Source: an uncultured Agathobaculum sp.
GTDB taxonomy: Bacteria; Bacillota; Clostridia; Oscillospirales; Butyricicoccaceae
NCBI RefSeq assembly: GCF_944384695.1
Contig: NZ_CALWUQ010000017.1
Location: forward strand, 1 to 34,987
Direction: 5' to 3'
DNA length: 34,987 bases
In this document: positions 3,688-15,625 of the stretch, in pieces
How positions within the stretch are numbered: the first letter of the stretch is position 1
Layout of the letters: each line of letters opens with the position of its first letter
The notes under the pieces: generated by a model
What the model saw: only the letters and a program-made list of their open reading frames with translations
Databases searched by the model: none
What the model was told of the DNA's origin: nothing
Made by a program: the position numbers and the translations under genes

Positions 3688-3716
3688 AGTATACCACAGT
3701 TTATCCGTGCTTTCAC
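3688..3716 (-). promoter_or_regulatory. promoter for the TIGR01440-HAD-TSCPD operon
   Basis: On the reverse strand, GTGAAA (3711-3716) and TATACT (3688-3693) are 17 bp apart. TGG directly before the -10 makes it an extended -10. Confidence 0.5.
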
Positions 3717-3733
3717 CGTCTTTTTTCCTGCGG

Positions 3734-3741
3734 CATACACT
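3734..3741 (+). promoter_or_regulatory. candidate sigma-E -10 element of the cotJ operon
   Basis: CATACACT fits the mother-cell sigma-E -10 consensus CATACANT and lies about 48 bp before cotJA. The -35 region 14-15 bp upstream is only a poor match, so the call rests on the -10 and on cotJ being sigma-E-controlled in Bacillus. Confidence 0.4.
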
Positions 3742-3788: not shown

Positions 3789-3986
3789 ATGAATACGACC
3801 AACCCTTCGGGCGATCAGGCGCTGCCTGCGGACAGCATTGATCCCCGTCTGCTTTCGCTGGCCATGGCGTTTGTGCCGGCGCAAAGCTTTGATACGCCGT
3901 ATGAACCCGCGCTTGCCTTCAGCCGTGGGACCATTTTTCCGGCGCTCGATAAACCCTTCCTCGGAGAGGAGGCCGTTCCGCAATGA
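3789..3986 (+). CDS. cotJA: spore coat-associated protein CotJA
   Basis: The 65-aa protein has the CotJA signature: LAMAFVPAQSF, then YEPALAFSRGTIFPALDKPF. AAGGAG at 3774-3779 supports the start. CotJA is part of the cotJABC operon, whose products enter the spore coat and localise the catalase-like CotJC. Its stop overlaps the cotJB start (ATGA). It is complete and normal, unlike cotJC downstream. Confidence 0.9.
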   Translation: MNTTNPSGDQALPADSIDPRLLSLAMAFVPAQSFDTPYEPALAFSRGTIFPALDKPFLGEEAVPQ

Positions 3987-4240
3987 CCGAACGCGAAAAA
4001 CTGCTCAGCCGTGTGCGCATGTATGATTTTGCGCTGGTGGACGTCATCCAGTACCTGGACGGACACCCGAAAAATGCTGCGGCACTGGCCTATTACAGCA
4101 AAATGCGCACCGCATTTGATAAAGCTGCAGCGGAATACGAGGATGCCTTCGGCCCGCTGACCGCCCGCGAGGTAGATACCCGCGTTGGTAACTGGCGCTG
4201 GATTGACGACCCGTGGCCGTGGGAAGGAGAGGATAACTAA
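3983..4240 (+). CDS. cotJB: spore coat protein CotJB
   Basis: The 85-aa protein fits CotJB: an N-terminal MTEREKLLSRVRMYDFALVD helix, LDGHPKNAAALAYY, and a C-terminal tryptophan-rich WRWIDDPWPWEGE. It overlaps cotJA by four bases and its TAA overlaps the cotJC ATG by one base, so translation of all three is coupled. It is needed for coat assembly together with CotJC in Bacillus. Confidence 0.9.
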   Translation: MTEREKLLSRVRMYDFALVDVIQYLDGHPKNAAALAYYSKMRTAFDKAAAEYEDAFGPLTAREVDTRVGNWRWIDDPWPWEGEDN

Positions 4241-4500
4241 TGTGGTCATACGATAAACGCTTACAATACCCTGTTAACATCAAAAACCCCGATCCGCAGA
4301 CCGCAAAAATTGTTATTACACAACTTGGCGGACCAGATGGTGAAATCGGTGCAGCGATGCGCTATCTCAACCAGCGCTATGCCATGCCGTACAAAGAGGG
4401 CAAGGCAATTCTGACCGACATCGGTATATTGTTTTCTATAATGCACCTTATCGGGCGAACCAGTGCGTTGCCGAGCATCAAGAAACATCACAACTTATAA
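4240..4500 (+). CDS. cotJC: CotJC, 5' part, interrupted by a mobile element
   Basis: Residues 1-61 are CotJC (WSYDKRLQYPV, then GGPDGEIGAAMRYLNQRY and ILTDI) and hold Glu35, a likely first manganese ligand of the catalase fold. From base 4425 the frame continues into element DNA and adds about 24 foreign residues (ILFSIMHLIGRTS) to a stop at 4498. This truncated 86-aa product lacks Glu65, His68 and the later ligands. The missing part lies at 12186-12657. Joining 4240-4424 to 12186-12657 gives an open frame of 218 codons. In the inserted state the operon cannot make functional CotJC. Confidence 0.93.
   Translation: MWSYDKRLQYPVNIKNPDPQTAKIVITQLGGPDGEIGAAMRYLNQRYAMPYKEGKAILTDIGILFSIMHLIGRTSALPSIKKHHNL
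4423..4449 (+). other. left attachment site, element half (attL)
   Basis: The GG crossover candidate (4423-4424) is followed by 14 nt and then the arm TAATGCACCTT (4439-4449). The same arm is found inverted at the right end at the same distance. The host half lies to the left within cotJC. Confidence 0.8.
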
Positions 4501-6094
4501 TTTGGGTACGGTAGCTATCGAGTTTTCCGGTTGAAACATACTTTAACCGAAACACAAGCGGAATATCTTTCAGATAGACTTCGACGGTATGCCCCTCATA
4601 TACTATAATTTTCTCCAGAACGGTTCCCAGCATAGTTTCTGCTTCTTCCTTCTCAAAACGCAGCAAATTTTCCGCTTCTGCCAAGATTGTCTGGATGCGT
4701 TTGTTTTGAGAGGCCCCCTTCTCCGCTCTGTCTTTCAAGTCAGAAAGCCGCTCTTTTAAGGTAGAAATCTCTTCATCTATGCTGTCTTTTTGCATTTTTA
4801 ATTCCTCTGAAGTGATTTCATCCGCCAAACGCAAATCAATCAGCTTCACTTTTTTGCTTTCTAAGTCATTGATTCTCGCTTCCACCTCACCAAGATGATC
4901 AGATCTGGCTGGTTCTTGTGTCATACGCTTGATTTCATTGTGTATCTCACGCAAAATGGATTCCTTATCCTGTATCAGCAGACCCAGTACATATAGCACA
5001 CACGCTTTTAAGCTCTTATCGCTGGCCCATTCGCTCATACTGCACTCCGCAACCCGAAAAGCAGCTGCTTTTGCGTGCGTAGAACACGCCCATGCCCTTG
5101 TCACACCCAGAGACGTATTCTTTTTGCGGCCAAGGAACCGCTCTCCACATACGCCGCAGAACACCTTGCCGCTCGCCCAGTATCGGTTGCTGTGTTTGGC
5201 TTTTTGTTCCGGTGTCGAACTCCGGCGTTCCAACTCTTTCTGCGTTTCTTCCCAAGTCTCCCGATCAACAATCGCAATATCTGGATGGTGGTCTTTGATA
5301 TAGACCATATCCTCTTCGCCGCGATTGTAGCGTTTTTTATGATCCAAAAAACTTTTGGTCCAGGTTTTTTTCTGGCATAGGTCGCCCACATACTTCTCGT
5401 TTCTCAATATCCGCAGAATCACCGTATTGGACCAGTCATTTTTGAATTTCTTGTGCCCGTCAGGCCGGTAAGGCATAATACCCGCTTCCTTTAACTCACG
5501 CGCAATCACGTGCGTCCCTTTTCCCTCCACAAGGTATTTATGAAAAATCAATCTGACAATACGTGCTTCTTCTTCCACAAGATATAATTTACCGCCCTCT
5601 ACCTGATAGCCCAGCATAGAGCGGCCGAAAACAACGCCTTTCTCCATTTGCCTTTTCTGACCCCACTTCACACGTTCCGAAGTTTTCCGGCTTTCTTCTT
5701 GTGCCAAAGCCGACATAAACGTCAGCCGCAGCTCTGCATCAGCCTGTTCGGTATCGATGCCGTCAAGCACGAACCGGATATAAACACCATGATCTCGCAA
5801 CTTTCTGGTATATGCTATGGAATCCAGTACGTTACGAGCGAAGCGTGAGACTTCCTTTGTTATGATAAGGTCAATTTTACCCGACAGCGCATCCGCAATC
5901 ATATCATTGAACCCTTGACGTTTTACGGTTTGCGTCCCCGATATCCCTTCGTCAGCATATATTTTGACCAACTCCCAGCCGTCCTCACGGTCTATGTACG
6001 ACTTGAAATAACTCACCTGTGACTCAAACGAATTTGTCTGATCGTCTTTATCAGTACTTACACGCGCATACGCAGCAACTCTTTTCTTCATCAT
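4478..6094 (-). CDS. large serine recombinase (element integrase/excisionase)
   Basis: The 538-aa protein starts at ATG 6092-6094 or the adjacent ATG at 6089-6091, behind AAAGGAGG. The N-terminal resolvase domain (about 1-150) begins AAYARVSTDKDDQ, with nucleophile Ser13, and has the conserved arginines in KEVSRFARN and ESRKTSERV. A recombinase domain follows (about 155-290, FGRSMLGYQVEGG), then a zinc ribbon around 310-355 with CGVCG and two later cysteines, and a coiled coil around 385-450. This is the full large-serine-recombinase layout. The gene ends only 54 bp from the left crossover site and reads toward it. It is the obvious enzyme for integration into, and excision from, cotJC. Confidence 0.93.
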   Translation of the reverse strand: MMKKRVAAYARVSTDKDDQTNSFESQVSYFKSYIDREDGWELVKIYADEGISGTQTVKRQGFNDMIADALSGKIDLIITKEVSRFARNVLDSIAYTRKLRDHGVYIRFVLDGIDTEQADAELRLTFMSALAQEESRKTSERVKWGQKRQMEKGVVFGRSMLGYQVEGGKLYLVEEEARIVRLIFHKYLVEGKGTHVIARELKEAGIMPYRPDGHKKFKNDWSNTVILRILRNEKYVGDLCQKKTWTKSFLDHKKRYNRGEEDMVYIKDHHPDIAIVDRETWEETQKELERRSSTPEQKAKHSNRYWASGKVFCGVCGERFLGRKKNTSLGVTRAWACSTHAKAAAFRVAECSMSEWASDKSLKACVLYVLGLLIQDKESILREIHNEIKRMTQEPARSDHLGEVEARINDLESKKVKLIDLRLADEITSEELKMQKDSIDEEISTLKERLSDLKDRAEKGASQNKRIQTILAEAENLLRFEKEEAETMLGTVLEKIIVYEGHTVEVYLKDIPLVFRLKYVSTGKLDSYRTQIISCDVS

Positions 6095-6126
6095 CGTTTC
6101 CTCCTTTTAACCCGCATTCTACCGCG

Positions 6127-6276
6127 TCAGCCTTCTCTTTTCCGCTGCCATTCTGCCAGAATTTGCAGTTCTGCACTGGTTAAAAGGCCCTGCTGGAATA
6201 ATTCTTTATAGATGCCTGTTTTTAATTTATTGATAAACTTTTCCCTGTCTTCTGCACTTAATTGCACTATATTCAT
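6127..6276 (-). CDS. small protein upstream of the serine recombinase
   Basis: The 49-aa frame begins MNIVQLSAEDREKF at ATG 6274-6276, six bases after AGGGTGGG. An alternative start at 6282 adds two residues. The helical sequence KTGIYKELFQQGLLTSAEL resembles short SHOCT-like domains. It is charged and probably cytoplasmic. It lies 32 bp upstream of the recombinase on the same strand and behind a candidate sigma-E promoter. Small proteins beside large serine recombinases can act as recombination directionality factors (SprB in SPbeta), so this is a reasonable candidate, though only by position. Confidence 0.6.
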   Translation of the reverse strand: MNIVQLSAEDREKFINKLKTGIYKELFQQGLLTSAELQILAEWQRKREG

Positions 6277-6297
6277 AGGCATCCCACCCTTTTTACA

Positions 6298-6326
6298 GGT
6301 GTATGCCCCTTTCTCTTGCACTATCA
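6298..6326 (-). promoter_or_regulatory. candidate sigma-E promoter for small ORF and recombinase
   Basis: On the reverse strand, TGATAGT (6320-6326) and CATACACC (6298-6305) are separated by 14 bp. The -10 matches CATACANT in seven of eight bases and the spacing is that of sigma-E promoters. The -35 shares only the ATA core. The predicted transcript would start just before the ribosome-binding site. Confidence 0.4.
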
Positions 6327-6328
6327 CC

Positions 6329-6365
6329 ATATAAGCAAACCCCCATGAAATCGATTTGCTTATAT
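6329..6365. repeat. inverted repeat upstream of the recombinase operon
   Basis: ATATAAGCAAA (6329-6339) is perfectly inverted at 6355-6365, with a 15-nt spacer. It sits immediately upstream of the candidate sigma-E promoter and could be a regulator-binding site. Confidence 0.5.
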
Positions 6366-6451
6366 CCGCCCAACTGTCGCTGTTTATGTTATTTTTCTGT
6401 CTTTTATGTTCTGTTTCAAAAATTTCTGTGTTAGCCTACTGCAAAAAGCTG

Positions 6452-6500
6452 TAAAAAAAATTAGAACAGTTAAGCGCACCGGCTTAACTGTTCTAATTTT
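6452..6500 (-). terminator. terminator of the tyrosine recombinase gene
   Basis: A perfect 19-bp stem (6457-6475 with 6482-6500) has a 6-nt loop. On the reverse strand it is followed by a run of T, right after the tyrosine recombinase stop. Confidence 0.85.
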
Positions 6501-7083
6501 ATGTTGGAAGAACAATGTGTTTCTGCAAAGCCTGCTCGACGAGCTTCGGCTCTACGCTCAGATAATGTTGCGTTACCGCCACCGATGAATGCTGCAAAAG
6601 TGTTCGCACCAGTTCTACGTTAAAATCATTCTCTGTATAAATGCTTATCGCAAAAAATTTACGAAACGAATGCGTCCCTACCCCAGTTAAATTCAGGTAT
6701 TGACATACCTTTTGCAAATGCAGCTGAACCGCACGCACCGTAATAGGGAACAATCGTTGTGTATCCTTTAATCCGTTTTGAATGGCATACCGCTGTAAAT
6801 ATATGAAAATGTCTGCCGGTACCGTAAATGTACGCAATTTCTCTGTTTTTTGTTCTATGATATTTAGGTGATACCGGCCACTCTCAAAAAGAATATCCGC
6901 TAAACGCAACCGAACAATATCCCCGATTCGCAGCCCTAAATTGGCTTCCAGAATCAACGCTGCCGCAATACGTACATTCGGTCTGACACACTCTCCATTG
7001 GGCAGTATAAACCCGGTACGGATCGTCTCTATGATTTTTTCAAATTCTTCCCGGTTAATTGCCCTGGTCCTCTTGTTTGCCAT
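6499..7083 (-). CDS. short tyrosine recombinase (catalytic domain only)
   Basis: The start is the ATG at 7081-7083, behind AAGGGG. The protein is 194 aa and lacks the usual N-terminal arm-binding and core-binding domains. Catalytic residues are all present: Arg52 in GLRIGD, a candidate Lys in EQKTEK, His138 and Arg141 in THSFRK, His165 in LLQHSS, and Tyr174 in TQHYLS. It is therefore probably active. Single-domain enzymes of this kind resemble phase-variation or plasmid/element resolution recombinases. Its target is not evident. It ends in a strong terminator. In an element already carrying a serine recombinase it may resolve multimers or invert a segment (inference). Confidence 0.85.
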   Translation of the reverse strand: MANKRTRAINREEFEKIIETIRTGFILPNGECVRPNVRIAAALILEANLGLRIGDIVRLRLADILFESGRYHLNIIEQKTEKLRTFTVPADIFIYLQRYAIQNGLKDTQRLFPITVRAVQLHLQKVCQYLNLTGVGTHSFRKFFAISIYTENDFNVELVRTLLQHSSVAVTQHYLSVEPKLVEQALQKHIVLPT

Positions 7084-7195
7084 ACCCGCACCCCTTTTCA
7101 AAAAAACTTCCTTAAACCATCAACTCACTTTTCGCTCTTTTCTTCCGGTGAAACTTCCTCCACCGCCACGACTACAATTTTCTTTTTTGCAATAT

Positions 7196-7768
7196 TTAAC
7201 GAACGGAAGAACCCGCATTCCCCGAATCTTCCGTTTGTTCTTTGAGCGCCCTGTATAAAGTAGACTTGCTCACGCCGGTCAGCAACGCAATCTGACGGAT
7301 CGTGTAGTCGCTGTTCCAGTACAAGTCCATTGCCTGCTCGATCTCTTTCTGCTTGACTGCCGGCCTGCCTACTCTGCCCTCCTCGCACGCCTTTTTATAG
7401 CCTGCCTGCTGCTTTTTCTTCTGAAAAAGCACATAGAGCTGCGTGAACTTTGTAACTATGTCCAAGTAGTCCTTACCTGACAGGAACGCTTCCTCACAGT
7501 CACATAAAGATACCTGTTTCTCTGCTAATGTTTGAAATACACGGATTAAATCCATAACATCGTCTGCCAAATCTGCAACACTACGGACGATCAGGATGTC
7601 CTCCTCGTCCAAACTTTCTAAAAGTTTGCATAATTCAGGCCTGTCCTCTGCCTGTTCAAACACAATCTGCTCATCCGCAACGCCGACCTTTTGGATCAGC
7701 TCAAAAACCGGCTGGTTGCTGTGTTCCTCAGCACCAAACCTGTTTTCCATTACATACGCCCATACCAT
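7196..7768 (-). CDS. resolvase-like protein lacking catalytic residues, with HTH
   Basis: The ATG at 7766-7768 follows AAGGAGGA by eight bases and gives 190 aa. The layout is that of a small serine recombinase (Tn3 resolvase type): a DRPELCKLLESL segment, DEEDILIVRSVADLADD where active enzymes have SLDRLGRN, a long helix, then GRPAVKQKEIEQAM and a C-terminal helix-turn-helix IRQIALLTGVSKSTLYRAL. The N-terminus reads VWAYVMENRF where ARVST with the nucleophilic serine would be, and the key arginines are missing. It probably binds DNA without cutting, as a regulator or accessory factor. Confidence 0.75.
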   Translation of the reverse strand: MVWAYVMENRFGAEEHSNQPVFELIQKVGVADEQIVFEQAEDRPELCKLLESLDEEDILIVRSVADLADDVMDLIRVFQTLAEKQVSLCDCEEAFLSGKDYLDIVTKFTQLYVLFQKKKQQAGYKKACEEGRVGRPAVKQKEIEQAMDLYWNSDYTIRQIALLTGVSKSTLYRALKEQTEDSGNAGSSVR

Positions 7769-7784
7769 ATAGAATTTCCTCCTT

Positions 7785-8107
7785 ACTATTATTTTGAAAA
7801 TTACCGTATTCCCCGCAAATGGAAACCGCTCCAAAATCTCATGAGATTTTGAATTTATGACCGCTTTCCCAATGGATTTTGGAACAAATTCAAAAAATAT
7901 GCTCTGCATTTGCAGTAGACCAATTTCACTCCTATAAATCGTGGAAAACCAACGCTTAAACAATCCAAATACAAAATAATTTGTATCGAATTCCAAAGAA
8001 TACGGTAAATTTTTTATTCCTACATTCGCTCGTTCCGGCTATCAGCAAAAATTGCACCGAAACCCCGAGGGATTTTTATACTTTCCCGTAACCCTATCAT
8101 TCTGGGA
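7785..8107. promoter_or_regulatory. gene-free region with several palindromes
   Basis: This 323-bp stretch upstream of the resolvase-like gene holds a perfect 20-bp palindrome (7832-7851), a near-perfect 18-bp palindrome (7969-7986), and an 11-bp inverted pair, TTACCGTATTC at 7801-7811 and its complement at 7998-8008. These could be operators or recombination sites for the DNA-binding proteins of the element. No coding region is supported. Confidence 0.45.
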
Positions 8108-8422
8108 TCAAACGCCGGAGCGTAAATACCGAATCCGAATCTTGAAACATTCGGTCAGGAAATTTTCAAACTCTAAATACTCTATCCCGTCTTTACAAAT
8201 CTGGCTGGGGGAGTAAATCAGCAAAGTGTCGAAACGACCTTTTGCGTCAAGCGCTTTCACTTCCCGCAGAATGTCTTTTGCACCGCCAAACGTCACGATA
8301 CACTCCACCACTTGAATATCGCTTTTCAACGCCTGCGCACAGAGTTGACACGCCTGATAAATGGCTGTTTTGATGCCCGCCTTATCATTTCTGACCTTTA
8401 ATGCAATGACTGCTTTCTCCAT
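8108..8422 (-). CDS. small protein resembling a recombinase catalytic fold, no active serine
   Basis: The 104-aa frame starts with ATG at 8420-8422, preceded by AAAGGGA. The order of elements fits the N-terminal resolvase domain: a first strand EKAVIALKVRNDK, a helix, IQVVECIVTFGG, then KGRFDTLLIYSPSQICKDGIEYLEFENFL and a final strand IRIRYL. Active enzymes have YDLSRLSR where this has YSPSQICK, and the first strand lacks the serine. It ends before any DNA-binding domain. It may be a decayed recombinase or a partner that pairs with another one. The assignment is by fold pattern only. Confidence 0.55.
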   Translation of the reverse strand: MEKAVIALKVRNDKAGIKTAIYQACQLCAQALKSDIQVVECIVTFGGAKDILREVKALDAKGRFDTLLIYSPSQICKDGIEYLEFENFLTECFKIRIRYLRSGV

Positions 8423-8458
8423 AAAATCACGTTCCCTTTCCTATCTTTATCACACGTC

Positions 8459-8499
8459 GTACCGATAGAATTTCGTTTGCTACGAAAATCTATCGGCAC
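8459..8499. repeat. 17-18-bp imperfect inverted repeat
   Basis: Arms at 8459-8476 and 8482-8499 share CCGATAGA and TTTCGT and have a 5-nt loop. It lies between two reverse-strand genes. No T-run follows on that strand, so an operator or recombination site is as likely as a terminator. Confidence 0.55.
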
Positions 8500-8510
8500 G
8501 AACTTTTCCT

Positions 8511-8834
8511 TCATATCACCGTGAGGCGTTGTACCGCAGTATATGCCAAAACCAGCTCTACCTCTTCGGGGTCGATAAATACACTGTCAAAAAACTCTAC
8601 ATTTTTATTCTGCAAAGCATTCACTCCCAAGAGTTCAAAATTGTTCAGCGAAATCCTAAAATCCTCTCCGGCGCATTCAAACGAAATACAATTTTCTTTC
8701 CAGTCGATATGCGGAGAAACAACCTCTTGTAACGCACATCCGCCCCCTAAAACCGATAGCGGAATCCTCACATAAAAACTATCAACCAGCTTCCCGATTC
8801 CATATTCCATAAAATGTAATATTTTATAACCCAT
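8511..8834 (-). CDS. unknown 107-aa protein
   Basis: The ATG at 8832-8834 is well supported by AAGGAGGG six bases upstream. The protein starts GYKILHFMEYGIGKLVDSFYVRIPLS and is rich in beta strands. It contains a phenylalanine- and acid-rich C-terminal half (NVEFFDSVFIDPEEVELVLAY). There is no signal peptide or membrane segment and I recognise no family. It is the first of the AT-rich reverse-strand genes of the element and directly follows the 1-kb gene-free region. Confidence 0.6.
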   Translation of the reverse strand: MGYKILHFMEYGIGKLVDSFYVRIPLSVLGGGCALQEVVSPHIDWKENCISFECAGEDFRISLNNFELLGVNALQNKNVEFFDSVFIDPEEVELVLAYTAVQRLTVI

Positions 8835-9122
8835 AGTGAGCCCTCCTTAAATATATTTTCTCTCAACGAAAGTAAACGGGCGAACCGTTTTCACTTCTTT
8901 ATGTAACATAGTAACGATTTATGTTCTTTTTCTCTTATAACTGTCATTATTTTTTCTTTTTTACCTTAAATTTTTTCTTATCTGTGTGAAATACTGATTA
9001 ACTCTGATTTCGTCTGATTTTGACGCATGGTTTATAAAACACGCAGCACTTTTTATAAAACTTCTGCAATTCGTTATAAACGACTGAACTGTGTATGTCT
9101 GGTTATATTCGGAACAACAAAA

Positions 9123-9158
9123 AGCGTATTCTGAACGATCACCGTTCGCGAATACGCT
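9123..9158. repeat. strong hairpin in the gene-free region
   Basis: AGCGTATTC and GAACG (9123-9137) pair with CGTTC and GAATACGCT (9143-9158) around a 5-nt loop, with only a small internal bulge. Confidence 0.6.
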
Positions 9159-9320
9159 TCCATTTTCGAACGATAAGCCGCACCGCGCGTTGTCGGCACG
9201 GTTATCGCTCCATATTATGTTGTGAAAGGCCACCTACCCCCGACCACCACCCCTCGGTACCACGACGATCTATCCACTCTGCAAGGGATGAATGATTTAA
9301 CCACTACCAACAATCCATGT

Positions 9321-9352
9321 ATTCTTGTATTCTTGTATTCTTGTGTTCTTGT
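9321..9352 (+). repeat. four tandem copies of an 8-bp unit
   Basis: ATTCTTGT occurs three times in a row, followed by GTTCTTGT. It is a simple repeat in AT-rich DNA and may be slippage-prone or iteron-like. Confidence 0.7.
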
Positions 9353-9451
9353 TTTCTCTTTTTCATTTTTTCTTATCAAACATATTGTATTGATTGACTT
9401 TTTTGTTATCTATATATACTTCTTCTCATTATATATATCGTAACATGAATC

Positions 9452-9528
9452 CATTTATGTCTATTTTGGAAATTCAAAGCATATTTTTTTCGATTTATGT
9501 CTTATCCATTTTGATTCATGTCTATTTT
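9452..9528 (+). repeat. three spaced copies of an ATTYATGTCTATTTT-like motif
   Basis: Copies at 9452-9467, about 9492-9505 and 9513-9528 share the core ATTYATGTCT. The middle copy is partial. They are direct repeats in very AT-rich DNA. Confidence 0.5.
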
Positions 9529-9786
9529 ATTTTTGAAAAACGGATAAACGCCCGCCAGACGGCAGTTTTAATATGACCATTACCGCATATAACCGGCTGA
9601 CGCCTCTCACGCTTCCAATATCACCTTCAAAACCTGATTCCGGTCAAATCCTCAAAATCCCTTACAGGATAAAGACAAAACACCGCTCAAATTTTTATGA
9701 TCCTCTCAATATGTTTTTCCCTTGTCTTATCTGCATTTTTTATTTTGTCGAAATAAATATTTGCTGATTTTTACCACTAAAAATAT

Positions 9787-9812
9787 CGGAGACCGCCCTT
9801 AGGTGGTCTCCG
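9787..9812 (-). repeat. GC-rich hairpin, possible second terminator
   Basis: CGGAGACC and GCC pair with GGT and GGTCTCCG around CTTA. On the reverse strand it is followed by ATATTTTTA, so it could back up the terminator at 9855-9889. Confidence 0.5.
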
Positions 9813-9854
9813 GCTGCTTAATCGTCAAAAATCTTAAAATTTTGTATTCAAAAG

Positions 9855-9889
9855 AAGGATGGGTACTCCCTACGAGAATACCCGTCCTT
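9855..9889 (-). terminator. terminator after the SLH cargo gene
   Basis: AAGGATGGGTA (9855-9865) pairs with TACCCGTCCTT (9879-9889), with one mismatch in the arms. T-rich DNA flanks both sides. It lies 17 bp beyond the SLH stop. Confidence 0.65.
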
Positions 9890-9905
9890 TTTATATATCC
9901 GTATG

Positions 9906-10568
9906 TTATGCTTTTTGATGAACGCGATAGATCAGCAAAATGCTCTGCTCTACCGTGCAAGCGTTTTTCGGAGAAGCGGTTGTGGCGGATGTGCCTTTCA
10001 TAATATCGTTTGCCGCCAGCTTGCCAACGCCTTCTGCTGCCCAGCTGGAAATGCTTGCTTTATCCGTAAACCCTTCAATACTGCCTGCATTGGGGGTCAG
10101 ATTTTCCCCTGTTTGCTCTGCAAGATACTGCGTCGCACGGTAAATCATGGTTGCGATCTGTTCGCGGTTGGTGGTGTTCTTCGGCGCAAATTTTCCTTCG
10201 CCAACGCCGGTGATGATGCCGGCTTCATAGGCTTTCAGCACCGCAGTATTAGAGGAATCGGTGAATGTATCGATTGGCGCAGCGCCCAGACTCTTTCCTA
10301 GCACCTTTTCCACCATGTTCACGATCAGCTCAGCGAACTGCTCCCGGGTGATATTGCCGGTAAAGGCGGGCTGATCTGTGAGGGGAGGCACCAGACCAAG
10401 GGAATCGGCCATGTCAAACTCCTCTCTCGCCCAGTCAGAGACACGCTCCTGTTCAATCACCTCAGGCGCAAACAAATCCTCCACGGTAACCTGCTCAAAG
10501 GTAAACGCCATAGCCTGCGTACTCAGCACCGCCATGAGCAACACTGCACTTAAAAAGCGTTTCATCAT
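9906..10568 (-). CDS. exported SLH-domain protein (element cargo)
   Basis: The start is placed at ATG 10566-10568, six bases after AGGGGGAG (10575-10582). An ATG at 10574 would add two residues but abuts the ribosome-binding site. A signal peptide (MKRFLSAVLLMAVLSTQAMA) is followed by about 200 aa with S-layer homology repeats: DMADSLGLVPPL with NITREQFAELIVNM, AYEAGIITGVGEGKFAPKNTTNREQIATMIYR, and a third around KLAANDIMKGTS. Such domains bind secondary cell-wall polymers. It follows the WG-repeat gene by 15 bp, so the two are cotranscribed. Base composition is host-like. Confidence 0.85.
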   Translation of the reverse strand: MMKRFLSAVLLMAVLSTQAMAFTFEQVTVEDLFAPEVIEQERVSDWAREEFDMADSLGLVPPLTDQPAFTGNITREQFAELIVNMVEKVLGKSLGAAPIDTFTDSSNTAVLKAYEAGIITGVGEGKFAPKNTTNREQIATMIYRATQYLAEQTGENLTPNAGSIEGFTDKASISSWAAEGVGKLAANDIMKGTSATTASPKNACTVEQSILLIYRVHQKA

Positions 10569-10583
10569 TTCCATCTCCCCCTG

Positions 10584-11651
10584 TTATAGACCAAAATTCT
10601 GCCGCATCCACGCTGCGGCGCGGCTGCTGTCCACAATGCGATCTTCGCCCTCAGTCTGCCCCTGTTCCTCGGCAAAAGGCACCGCCGTACTGAAAGACTG
10701 CATTTCTTGCTTGCTGTCAAACTTGACCCATAAGAACGAATATTTGCCGCGGGTCAGCCCGGAAAACGCCGAACTGAACGCATACTGCCGGCTTTCGCCG
10801 GCGCCCAGATCAATCTCAAAGAAAAAAACCTGTGTTCCAGATTTCGATTGATCCGGCGTATAGGAGACCAGCGCATAGTATTCGTTCAGCGGCTCGGTGG
10901 TGTTGTTGGTGGCCTGCGCCGCATACGCCGCGCCATTTTGAAACACATAATTGCCATCATCCAGCGGGTCACCCGCGCCGATGCCCGTATAATTAACAAT
11001 CTGCAGCGTCAGCGGCTCTTCTACCACGGGGATCTCAACCGCATCGGGCATATAGCCGTTGTCGCCGATCAGGTACAACCCGACCAGATCGTCGGTGCCC
11101 CAGGTGCTGGCGTTGCTCTTGGCGCCGCTCTTGTTGATCTCTGCAACCTGCGCGCCATTCACAGACCCAAACGCATCACTGACAAATACCGTCGCCTTGC
11201 CATCGTGGAAATAGCCCACATATACACTGCCCATCGCATCAAAGGCGCTAAACTGACAAGGAATGACCAGCTTGCCAGTAGTGTCGATATAACCCACCTT
11301 CATCGTGTCCTTATCCATGACCGCGGCCAGACCCTCGAAAAAGTCGAACACATACATAAAACGTCCGCGGTTCAGGTCAACGACCTTGCCTTGCTCATTG
11401 ATGTAATTCCACTGGTCCCCCACCAGCACGGGCATCAATCCCTCCCGGAATGGGCGCTCGCCGTACTGAAAAATGTCTTGCGACAACAGTTTATCTCCAT
11501 TTTCCTGCCAAAATTGGTCGGCGTTTACCGCACAAACCATCGGGGCATACGCCGCATCGTCAGGGAATACCCCATCTGCTGCAAAAGCAGGAATTGTCAG
11601 GCAAGACGCCAGGGTCAGTGCGGCCAGCAGGCCACTTAGAAATTTTTTCAT
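10584..11651 (-). CDS. exported WG-repeat protein (element cargo)
   Basis: The 355-aa protein starts at ATG 11649-11651, behind AGAGGAT. A signal peptide (KKFLSGLLAALTLASCLTIPAFA) leads to WG-type repeats: FREGLMPVLVGDQWNYINEQGKVV and FFEGLAAVMDKDTMKVGYIDTTGKLVIP. A C-terminal beta-rich region without recognised domain follows (about 210-320). A cysteine sits in the signal peptide region, but the following residues do not make a clear lipobox. It is probably secreted or wall-associated together with the downstream SLH protein. Its function is unknown. Confidence 0.75.
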   Translation of the reverse strand: MKKFLSGLLAALTLASCLTIPAFAADGVFPDDAAYAPMVCAVNADQFWQENGDKLLSQDIFQYGERPFREGLMPVLVGDQWNYINEQGKVVDLNRGRFMYVFDFFEGLAAVMDKDTMKVGYIDTTGKLVIPCQFSAFDAMGSVYVGYFHDGKATVFVSDAFGSVNGAQVAEINKSGAKSNASTWGTDDLVGLYLIGDNGYMPDAVEIPVVEEPLTLQIVNYTGIGAGDPLDDGNYVFQNGAAYAAQATNNTTEPLNEYYALVSYTPDQSKSGTQVFFFEIDLGAGESRQYAFSSAFSGLTRGKYSFLWVKFDSKQEMQSFSTAVPFAEEQGQTEGEDRIVDSSRAAAWMRQNFGL

Positions 11652-11750
11652 TGCGTTTATCCTCTCTTTTTAATTTGTTGGCATGGGAAATGCTGCATCC
11701 GTTTTTTCACTCACTCCAATCTTGTTTTTATTTTGTAAAACCTCGTAAAC

Positions 11751-11767
11751 ACTAACTTGTACTTAGT
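11751..11767. promoter_or_regulatory. candidate operator between divergent genes
   Basis: ACTAA and TTAGT arms flank CTTGTAC. The site lies between the WG gene and the divergent XRE gene, so it is a plausible binding site for the XRE regulator. Support is weak. Confidence 0.3.
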
Positions 11768-11837
11768 TTATCCTGATTGTACCATATAAATATTTTCGGT
11801 GCAAGCCCGTACAATATTCTTTGGAGGAGCTTGCGCT

Positions 11838-12080
11838 ATGAAAAACGAAAACATCAGTAAATACCGGGACGAGTTTGTGGCCGTTGGTCTGAAAATTGGA
11901 TATTTGAGAAGGCAAAGGGGAATGACGCAAGAGCAGCTTGCAGAAAAGGCAGGGATTTCCCTGGGTTTCCTCAGCCAGATTGAAGCCCCCAACCTGAGTG
12001 TCGGAATTTCTCTGGCTACGCTGTTTTCCATTGCGGAGGTGCTGCAAGTGCCTCCCTCGAAGCTGTTAGAATTTGATTGA
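11838..12080 (+). CDS. XRE-family helix-turn-helix regulator
   Basis: The ATG at 11838 follows GGAGGAGC. The 80-aa protein is essentially one HTH_3 domain: LKIGYLRRQRGMTQEQLAEKAGISLGFLSQIE, then SLATLFSIAEVLQVPPSKLLEFD. Small regulators of this type act as repressors of element or phage operons. It is the only forward-strand gene in the element, divergent from the WG-SLH pair, and ends at a strong terminator about 100 bp from the right crossover site. It may repress the cargo operon or the recombinase (inference). Confidence 0.88.
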   Translation: MKNENISKYRDEFVAVGLKIGYLRRQRGMTQEQLAEKAGISLGFLSQIEAPNLSVGISLATLFSIAEVLQVPPSKLLEFD

Positions 12081-12110
12081 TTTTCTATTGAAATCCACTA
12101 CACTAAATAT

Positions 12111-12147
12111 AACACGGGTTGCCGGTGCCGGCAACCCGTGTTTCTGT
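12111..12147 (+). terminator. terminator of the XRE gene
   Basis: A perfect 15-bp GC-rich stem (12111-12125 with 12128-12142) has a tiny loop and is followed by a T-rich stretch. It insulates the element from the 3' part of cotJC. Confidence 0.8.
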
Positions 12148-12158
12148 TTATTCTTAAA

Positions 12159-12185
12159 AAGGTGCATTACCGATGCGCATGTAGG
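12159..12185 (+). other. right attachment site, element half (attR)
   Basis: The arm AAGGTGCATTA (12159-12169), then 14 nt, then GG (12184-12185). It is the mirror image of the left end. CotJC coding sequence resumes at 12186. Confidence 0.8.
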
Positions 12186-12657
12186 CACAGAGGAGCTTGC
12201 GCATCAGGAGATGATTGCCGCAATTGTCTACCAGTTGACCCGTAACCTGACGCCTGAGCAAATCAAGGAGGGCGGCTTTGACGCCTACTTCGTTGATCAC
12301 ACAACCGGTATTTATCCGCAGTCCGCAGCGGGTATCCCGTTTTCTGCCTCTGCGCTGCAAAGCAAGGGCGACCCGATTACCGATTTGTTTGAAGATTTGG
12401 CAGCAGAGCAAAAGGCACGCACGACGTATGACAACCTGTTGCGCCTGATTGACAATCCGGATGTACGCGAACCGCTCAAGTTCCTGCGCGCACGTGAAAT
12501 CGTGCACTTCCAGCGCTTTGGCGACGCACTGCGTGTCGTGCAGGATCATCTGGACAGCAAAAACTACTATGCGTTCAATCCCGCGATTGACCTGCGCAAG
12601 TCTGCGCGCAAAACCGCGGCATCTGCGGAGACGGACACCGCCACTGCGTCAGACTGA
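12186..12657 (+). CDS. cotJC: CotJC, 3' part, separated from its start
   Basis: This fragment has no proper start of its own. It begins TEELAHQEMIAAIVYQL, which continues CotJC residue 62 when the halves are joined (GG plus C gives Gly62). It supplies Glu65 and His68, then REIVHFQRFGDAL with further likely ligands, of the manganese-catalase fold, and a family-typical ILVDHTTG-like region (YFVDHTTGIYPQ). The C-terminus is an alanine- and threonine-rich tail. The frame is intact over 156 codons with no decay, which argues that the gene is still under selection and therefore is rejoined at some stage. Confidence 0.93.
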
Positions 12658-14926: not shown

Positions 14927-15625
14927 CTATGCGTTCTCCTTGAGCGCATCACGCAGCTTTTCCAGCGCCCGCTTTTCGATGCGGGATACATACGACCGTG
15001 AAATGCCGAAGCGTTTGGCAATCTCGCGCTGCGGCAGCGGTGCAGCCAGACCAAGGCCGTACCGAAGCCGTATGATTTCCCTTTCGCGCGGGGACAGCGA
15101 TGCGGCGAGCGCGCGATGCATGGCGAGGTAGCGGTCGTGTTCTTCCACGGCGGCCAGACTGTCATCTTCGCAGCAGATGACATCCTGCAATGCCAGCGCA
15201 TTGCCGTCACCATCGGTTTCCAGCGTGTCGGACAGCGACAGCTCGCCCGCGTTTTTCCGTTTTTGCCGGAAGTGCATCAGCAGCTCGTTTTGAATGCATT
15301 TGGAGGCATAGGTCGCCAGACGGATGCTTTTATCCGGACGGAAGGTGTTGACCGCTTTGATCAGTCCAATCGTGCCAATGGAAATCAGGTCATCCTGCTC
15401 GGCGCTGGAGGCATAGTATTTCTTTACAATGTGCGCCACCAGCCGCAGATTGTGCTCAATCAGCTGCGTACGGGCTTTTTCATCGTTTTCCTGCTGCATT
15501 TTTCGAAGCAGCTCGGCTTCCTTGTCCGGCGGCAGCGGTTTGGGAAACGACCCATCCGCGCCCTGCACGCGCAGGACCAGAAAAAAGAATGCGCCGCCCA
15601 GCGCAAACAGGGCGGGAAACAGCAT
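14927..15625 (-). CDS. sigK: sporulation sigma factor SigK, uninterrupted
   Basis: The 232-aa protein has a short hydrophobic N-terminus (LFPALFALGGAFFFLVLRV) as in pro-sigma-K, then FPKPLPPDKEAELL. Sigma region 2 is IEHNLRLVAHIVKKYY with DLISIGTIGLIKAVNTF, and region 4 is REIAKRFGISRSYVSRIEKRALEKL. These are SigK hallmarks. Sigma-K directs late mother-cell transcription, including coat genes. In several sporeformers the gene is split by the skin element; here it is intact. The start is supported by GAGGTG eight bases upstream. Confidence 0.92.
   Translation of the reverse strand: MLFPALFALGGAFFFLVLRVQGADGSFPKPLPPDKEAELLRKMQQENDEKARTQLIEHNLRLVAHIVKKYYASSAEQDDLISIGTIGLIKAVNTFRPDKSIRLATYASKCIQNELLMHFRQKRKNAGELSLSDTLETDGDGNALALQDVICCEDDSLAAVEEHDRYLAMHRALAASLSPREREIIRLRYGLGLAAPLPQREIAKRFGISRSYVSRIEKRALEKLRDALKENA

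What the first reader, a model, noticed from the sequence alone, without database searches (positions are those of the whole stretch)
4240..12657. Spore gene cotJC split by an excisable-looking element
The two halves of cotJC lie 7.76 kb apart in the same frame. Joining them at a shared GG dinucleotide restores the family sequence DIGTEELAH and an open frame of 218 codons, including metal ligands Glu35, Glu65 and His68. Neither half shows decay. The element carries its own large serine recombinase next to one end. This is the arrangement of skin in sigK and SPbeta in spsM, where excision in the mother cell rebuilds a sporulation gene and the loss is harmless because the mother cell dies. I cannot tell whether a cotJC element has been described before.
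Basis: partly seen in the sequence, partly recalled or inferred. Interest (0 to 1): 0.93.

Follow-up and report, generated by a model that had tools for sequence, protein, structure and literature searches.

The report
Spore-coat gene spliced at DNA level
In this bacterium a spore-coat gene is cut in two by a 7.8-kb DNA element that likely cuts itself out during spore formation and rejoins the gene, and relatives across the same bacterial order have this one gene cut at up to five fixed places, each beside its own family of recombinase genes.

Summary
cotJC is split by a 7,761-bp element; the halves share GG (4423-4424, 12184-12185), join to 218 codons, and the element ends form an 11-bp inverted repeat equally spaced from GG, as in serine-integrase attP sites. 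Relatives (genus Agathobaculum by matching contigs) have cotJC split at the same positions: 31 of 72 genomes in the family and at least 72 of 297 sampled in the order. There are five sites. Genome G023 has all five filled: six pieces, one only three codons long, about 83 kb of inserts. Sixty-eight adjacent large serine recombinases fall into five clades, one per site. Three of the five families have a conserved small protein just upstream (predicted directionality factor), preceded by sigma-E-like promoters more often than controls. SpoIVA is unsplit in 69 of 69 genomes. Excision was not observed; it is inferred. It works like skin in sigK; a five-site, order-wide version in one sporulation gene did not appear in my literature searches.

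The parts
3711..3741 (+). putative promoter of the cotJ operon (TTTCACCG ... CATACACT; -10 like sigma-E/sigma-K)
   Evidence: conserved by eye in related genomes; its motif score alone was not above shuffles (48 of 200 reach it)
3789..3986 (+). cotJA-like gene
   Evidence: position and motif GTIFPALDKPF, name from memory; no NCBIfam match
3983..4240 (+). cotJB
   Evidence: Pfam CotJB E 1.6e-25
4240..4422 (+). cotJC, 5' piece (codons 1-61)
4423..4424 (+). shared GG, left junction (attL core)
4425..4449 (+). left element arm of the inverted repeat
4478..6094 (-). large serine recombinase, S2a clade
   Evidence: Resolvase, Recombinase, Zn_ribbon_recom; tree
6127..6330 (-). 67-aa protein, predicted recombination directionality factor
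   Evidence: homologues directly upstream of the recombinase in G032, G077, G106; no NCBIfam or PHROG match
6499..7101 (-). tyrosine recombinase
   Evidence: Phage_integrase E 2.3e-14
7196..7996 (-). resolvase/invertase-like gene
9906..10574 (-). SLH-domain protein (cargo)
10584..11651 (-). WG-repeat protein (cargo)
11799..12080 (+). HTH_3 regulator
12159..12183 (+). right element arm of the inverted repeat
12184..12185 (+). shared GG, right junction (attR core)
12186..12657 (+). cotJC, 3' piece with stop
14927..15625 (-). sigK, uninterrupted
   Evidence: NF004471 259.6 bits, cut-off 252; TIGR02846 250.9 bits, below its cut-off 298.65

Best explanation
The 7,761-bp element between the two halves of cotJC carries its own large serine recombinase and likely excises in the mother cell during sporulation, which would rejoin the halves at the shared GG into an intact 218-codon spore-coat gene. 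The recombinase is predicted to pair attL with attR and exchange strands at GG; the 67-aa protein encoded just upstream is predicted to switch it from integration to excision, and sigma-E is predicted to drive the two genes. The spore would keep the interrupted chromosome and the mother cell dies, so the loss would not be inherited. The window is one filled site of five: the same gene is entered at S1 (codons 30-31), S2a (62), S2b (65-66), S3 (134-136) and S4 (173-175), and the recombinases beside each site form one clade per site. Shown from sequence: the split, cores, arms, collinearity, restored frames, clades by site, empty sites in relatives. Inferred: excision, its cell and time, and what the small protein does.
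For: Cores and arms. 29 of 31 split genes of the family rejoin without a stop. 27 of 27 same-contig pairs collinear in the family, 33 of 36 in the order set. Three-codon exons between S2a and S2b elements in G023 and G082; the six pieces of G023 read 228 aa. Five recombinase clades for five sites, 68 rows, SH-aLRT 100 each. Small upstream proteins conserved in S2a, S3, S4. Sigma-E-like promoters before them: sum 301.4 against shuffled maximum 283.5, 0 of 100; 43% of 23 reach 13.5 against 10% of 63 AT-matched controls, p 2.7e-5. Purifying selection: window branch 24 synonymous to 0 non-synonymous. S4 recombinases diverge about as much as cotJC in one genus. Empty versus filled site in near relatives G004/G005, four synonymous differences. 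SpoIVA control: 69 of 69 in one piece. SpoIVA and sigma genes present in the window's genome.
Against: No excised product was seen; pattern scans for a free attP in viral contigs found none with arms. Time since insertion is unknown, so much of the selection signal may predate it. The window's own promoter match is weak (8 of 100 shuffles reach it), the cotJ promoter score is not above shuffles, and motif weights were set from memory. No consistent small protein for S1; S2b was not searched separately. Relatives of the S2a recombinases also lie outside cotJC. Most genomes are metagenome assemblies; whether this species sporulates is not known.
Confidence: 0.8

Rival explanations
1. cotJC is only a favoured landing site for parasitic elements; insertion switches off a dispensable coat gene and nothing rebuilds it.
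For: C. difficile coat catalase mutants have little coat defect (PMC11222575 passage). G005 carries a decayed extra 3' copy, so loss is tolerated in places. Excision not observed.
Against: 29 of 31 split genes keep every frame, even in four to six pieces. Split branches do not show relaxed selection: 317 synonymous to 50 non-synonymous in 13 split genomes (G006 left out) against 332 to 101 on the intact branches. S4 elements appear co-inherited while cotJC keeps few non-synonymous changes. Sigma-E-like promoters precede the small-protein and recombinase genes.
Confidence: 0.1
2. The elements excise, but on general stress or at random, as ordinary mobile elements or by reversible lysogeny in growing cells, not as part of sporulation.
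For: Some elements are large (up to 52 kb) and IMG/VR and phage records hold cotJC junctions. The yin element in yabG is seen excised at all time points (PMC10747680 passages).
Against: Five unrelated recombinase clades chose the same coat gene. Promoter enrichment is for the sigma-E type. The window element has no phage structural gene (PHROGs; its only tail and lysis hits fall on the SLH region).
Confidence: 0.08
3. Assembly artefact, or a gene that has become two separately made subunits.
For: Many genomes are fragmented and some pieces lie on different contigs.
Against: Splits in single-contig genomes G005, G216, G255 and in two-contig G001 and G233. SpoIVA shows none in 69. A three-codon piece cannot be a subunit.
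Confidence: 0.02

Closest known systems
skin element in sigK (B. subtilis; C. difficile)
   Same: Large serine recombinase element in a mother-cell gene; in C. difficile a directionality factor (CD1234) under sigma-E and SpoIIID gives excision (PMC5025042 abstract and passages).
   Different: One site in a sigma-factor gene; here a coat gene with five sites, and sigK of the window is whole.
gin element in gerE (B. cereus)
   Same: Non-phage element with three recombinase genes and a 42-aa directionality factor GirX (PMC5595907: abstract, introduction, start of results and passages).
   Different: 28.6 kb, one site, another gene; in the window the three recombinase genes are one large serine, one tyrosine and one resolvase-like.
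SPbeta in spsM, vfbin in spoVFB, vrin in spoVR, yin in yabG
   Same: Elements in mother-cell sporulation genes that rejoin on excision (PMC4191935 and PMC10747680 passages).
   Different: Described as one element per gene in the passages seen; none is in cotJC.
Heterocyst gene interruption elements of cyanobacteria
   Same: Several elements in one developmental gene, recombinases related by position; record four in Rivularia PCC 7116 nifD (PMC4874684 passages). XisF is the best NCBIfam model for the window recombinase, far below its cut-off (116.1 of 375 bits).
   Different: Other phylum and cell fate; G023 cotJC has five elements and a three-codon exon.

Membership tests
Sporulation gene-intervening elements (skin type) | Interrupts a gene made in the mother cell | tested here: inconclusive
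   Gene is cotJC in a cotJ operon; mother-cell expression is recalled from B. subtilis, promoter seen by eye only
Sporulation gene-intervening elements (skin type) | Carries its own site-specific recombinase | tested here: met
   4478-6094(-)
Sporulation gene-intervening elements (skin type) | Halves join precisely at a short shared core | tested here: met
   GG core, 218 aa
Sporulation gene-intervening elements (skin type) | Relatives with the empty site | tested here: met
   Seven whole genes in the genus
Sporulation gene-intervening elements (skin type) | Directionality factor in the element | tested here: inconclusive
   Conserved 67-aa neighbour; no activity test
Sporulation gene-intervening elements (skin type) | Excision during sporulation in the mother cell | not testable with these tools
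   Needs cultures or reads
Large serine recombinases | Resolvase, Recombinase and zinc-ribbon domains | tested here: met
   Three Pfam matches over cut-off
Prophage | Phage structural genes | tested here: not met
   Nine window-element proteins against PHROGs: integration and regulation families; tail and lysis hits only on the SLH protein

The most novel reading that the evidence does not exclude
cotJC is a gene in pieces across a whole bacterial order: five families of serine-recombinase elements, each tied to its own position in one gene of about 650 bp and run by mother-cell promoters, turn the making of one coat protein into up to five DNA splicing events. In one genome six exons, one only three codons long, are joined after 83 kb is removed: a bacterial counterpart of ciliate DNA splicing, carried out in a cell that is about to die.
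Probability: 0.7. Interest if true: 0.95.

Novelty: new variant of a known kind. Interest (0 to 1): 0.88.

Why it matters
The sporulation gene-intervening elements in the passages I saw are single-site cases in Bacilli and a few Clostridia. Here one coat gene is the shared target of five recombinase clades in at least 72 of 297 sampled genomes of an order. This makes open questions testable: why genes of a terminal cell attract such elements, whether the elements time expression, and whether several excisions occur in a set order. It also offers 68 recombinases beside a known integration point, three of the five families with predicted directionality factors, and warns that cotJC may be annotated as broken or missing in many gut genomes.

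Tried and rejected
Free attP in viral contigs: the S3 pattern gave 4 hits, none with arms; the S1 pattern gave none. Sigma-E motif at cotJA: not above shuffles in most genomes tested. A common small protein for S1: 3 of 23 loci only, all from other families. 'Intact second copies' in G004 and G005 are 36%-identity paralogues. First S2 grouping: one recombinase (G082) fell outside; junction positions and more DNA split S2 into S2a and S2b, so those labels were partly drawn after seeing the sequences. In one search I labelled 16 recombinases 'elsewhere'; G037 and G048 proved to be in cotJC, G022 and G024 had too little flank to tell, and 12 show other flanks; with those labels S2 needed 5 changes. 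Inverted-repeat scores used one codon frame for S2a and S2b, which lowers the S2b scores. Rejoining used crossover codons that I set by hand from the shared cores; G082 was not rejoined with its micro-exon. Census: the script counted 30 split and 33 whole of 72; G073 counted as whole because its match ran on into the element, so I give 31 and 32. Before the counts I dropped 19 rows and 8: paralogue rows, decayed copies in G005 and G085, odd pieces in G012 and G016. The 56 genomes were picked by hand from the 297 as split-looking, so 72 of 297 (21 in the family by the script, 51 others) is a lower bound; G174 was taken out, G327 (one pair in reversed order) and G227 (opposite strands) are irregular. 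The tree left out recombinases under 400 aa; one search also those over 400 bp from a junction (G048, G113); G032's S2 recombinase, 2.2 kb away, was kept by hand.
Full report
What is there. The window holds a cotJA-like gene (3789-3986), cotJB (3983-4240) and the first 61 codons of cotJC, then a 7,761-bp element, then the rest of cotJC to 12657. The two pieces are the only Mn-catalase matches in the genome. Joined at the GG they share they give 218 aa. The excised form would read AAGGTGCATTACCGATGCGCATGTA-GG-TATATTGTTTTCTATAATGCACCTT: an 11-bp inverted repeat at the same distance on both sides. Its score is reached by 12 of 2,287 cross-site pairs and 5 of 5,000 random pairs.

Relatives. G010 and G020, of the same genus, have contigs of the same length as records titled Candidatus Agathobaculum pullicola and uncultured Agathobaculum; the family name Butyricicoccaceae is from memory. 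Of 25 genomes of the genus, 7 have cotJC whole, 15 have complementary pieces and 3 have partial pieces only. In the family 87 genomes were searched, 75 had a match, and 72 kept cotJC rows after I removed paralogues and odd rows: 31 split, 32 whole, 9 partial only (G073 moved by hand). One site is filled in 19, two in 7, three in 3, four in 1 (G082), five in 1 (G023), counting the micro-exons. All 27 same-contig pairs that the script formed are collinear on one strand. In the order 297 genomes were searched, and at least 72 are split at the same positions, among them the single-contig genomes G216 and G255; 33 of 36 same-contig pairs there are collinear. Controls in the family: SpoIVA has a match in 69 of 87 genomes and is one piece in 69 of 69. 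cotJB has a match in 65; in G001 it stops at position 71 of 76 and lies 25 kb upstream of cotJC, and G012 and G088 have an extra partial match.

The five sites. S1, codons 30-31 (core GGnCC); S2a, codon 62 (GG); S2b, codons 65-66 (GAACT-like); S3, codons 134-136 (GCAGCAGA); S4, codons 173-175 (TTTGGYGA). Element ends form inverted repeats: 49 pairs, mean score 10.1, against 5.1 for 2,287 cross-site pairs. In G023 and G082 an S2a and an S2b element lie in tandem with GGTACAGAAGA or GGTACCGAAGA between them, an exon of three codons. G023 thus has six pieces; joined they read 228 aa without a stop, and the intervals are 7.3, 15.4, 33.7, 12.4 and 14.0 kb.

Recombinases. A large serine recombinase lies within 160 bp of a junction in most cases, at the left or the right end, its 3' end facing cotJC in nearly all (exceptions: G006 at S2, G078 at S4, G255 at S2). 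In the final tree 68 recombinases fall into five clades that coincide with the sites (S1 15, S2a 19, S2b 8, S3 16, S4 10; SH-aLRT 100 each; 4 label changes, the minimum; 0 of 200 shuffles as low). They were collected by their nearness to cotJC, so exclusivity is not shown: of 16 further hits to the window recombinase, 12 have other flanks, 2 are in cotJC and 2 could not be placed.

Directionality factors. Directly upstream of the recombinase lies a small protein conserved within families: S2a (4 in the window's group, 5 in a second group), S3 (9, and 3 in a second group), S4 (6). None was consistent for S1; S2b was not searched separately. The window's 67-aa protein matches no NCBIfam or PHROG family. 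By analogy with GirX (42 aa) and CD1234 it is a predicted directionality factor.

Timing. In 23 upstream regions the best sigma-E-like matches sum to 301.4 against a shuffled mean of 275.4 and maximum of 283.5 (0 of 100). They beat the reverse strand in 19 of 23, and 43% reach 13.5 against 10% of 63 AT-matched control genes (p 2.7e-5). The motif weights come from memory of the B. subtilis consensus and the elements are related to each other, so p is optimistic; the window's own match is weak (8 of 100 shuffles). Sporulation genes: SpoIVA in 7 of 8 genomes tested, the window's included; sigK whole at 14927-15625.

Selection. Window gene against G010: 62 synonymous, 2 non-synonymous; on the window branch 24 to 0. 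Summed over 13 split genomes of the genus (G006 left out because its last codons come from the element) 317 to 50, against 332 to 101 on the intact branches; with G006, 351 to 85 against 347 to 108. G004 (whole) and G005 (two elements) differ by four synonymous sites. S4 recombinases of G032, G076 and G077 diverge about as much as cotJC (dS 1.16, 0.76, 0.57 against 0.97, 1.08, 0.36), which suggests inheritance together, and hence selection on an interrupted gene; repeated transfer is not excluded.

Literature. Ten searches of the PMC library listed no element in cotJC and no sporulation gene with several elements; I saw listings and, for nine papers, passages or parts, not whole texts. Subscription papers and preprints are not held. 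The nearest precedent for many elements in one gene is cyanobacterial: 10 genes with multiple elements, four in Rivularia nifD (PMC4874684 passages).

Verdict. The feature is real and works, by inference, like skin. The five-site, five-clade, order-wide form in one coat gene is a new variant. Excision, its timing and the role of the small protein await a junction and circle assay in a sporulating isolate.

Noticed in passing
L252 near 1269-1540 and L060 near 2190-2250 (G001 C2 1007768-1033250): cotJB of G001 is itself interrupted near its 3' end, about 25 kb before cotJC, with inverted arms (GACACACGGCATACC / GGTATGGCGCGTGTC); no large serine recombinase was found at its ends.
   Followed up: partly
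G082 C33:91126-103721: sigK is in two pieces about 12 kb apart (positions 2-70 and 66-226), like skin.
   Followed up: no
L027, L033, L036, L037, L038: Relatives of the window recombinase lie directly upstream of a gene that reads like spo0A (name from memory) in five Agathobaculum genomes.
   Followed up: no
Within one recombinase clade the gene sits at the left end in some genomes and at the right end in others, so elements may insert in either orientation; unexplained.
   Followed up: no
L179 (G005 C1:1028287-1028624): A decayed extra 3' copy of cotJC lacking about 49 codons, on the opposite strand to the split gene.
   Followed up: no
MT839280.1, MT837874.1; IMG/VR loci L231, L236, L237: Faecal phage and viral contigs carry cotJC pieces beside related recombinases; the phage records have no annotation.
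   Followed up: partly
L211, L215, L227, L228, L229: Minimal elements of about 2.8 to 3.7 kb in other families carry the recombinase or resolvase genes plus cargo that reads like a nucleoside phosphorylase, superoxide dismutase or ABC transporter (names by eye).
   Followed up: no
G327 C50, G227 C3: Pieces in changed order or on opposite strands, a possible rearrangement or misassembly.
   Followed up: no
L208 (G012 C37) and L046 (G016 C211): Extra cotJC 5' pieces ending at S1 beside another cotJC copy; the G016 one is only 54% identical and may be contamination.
   Followed up: no
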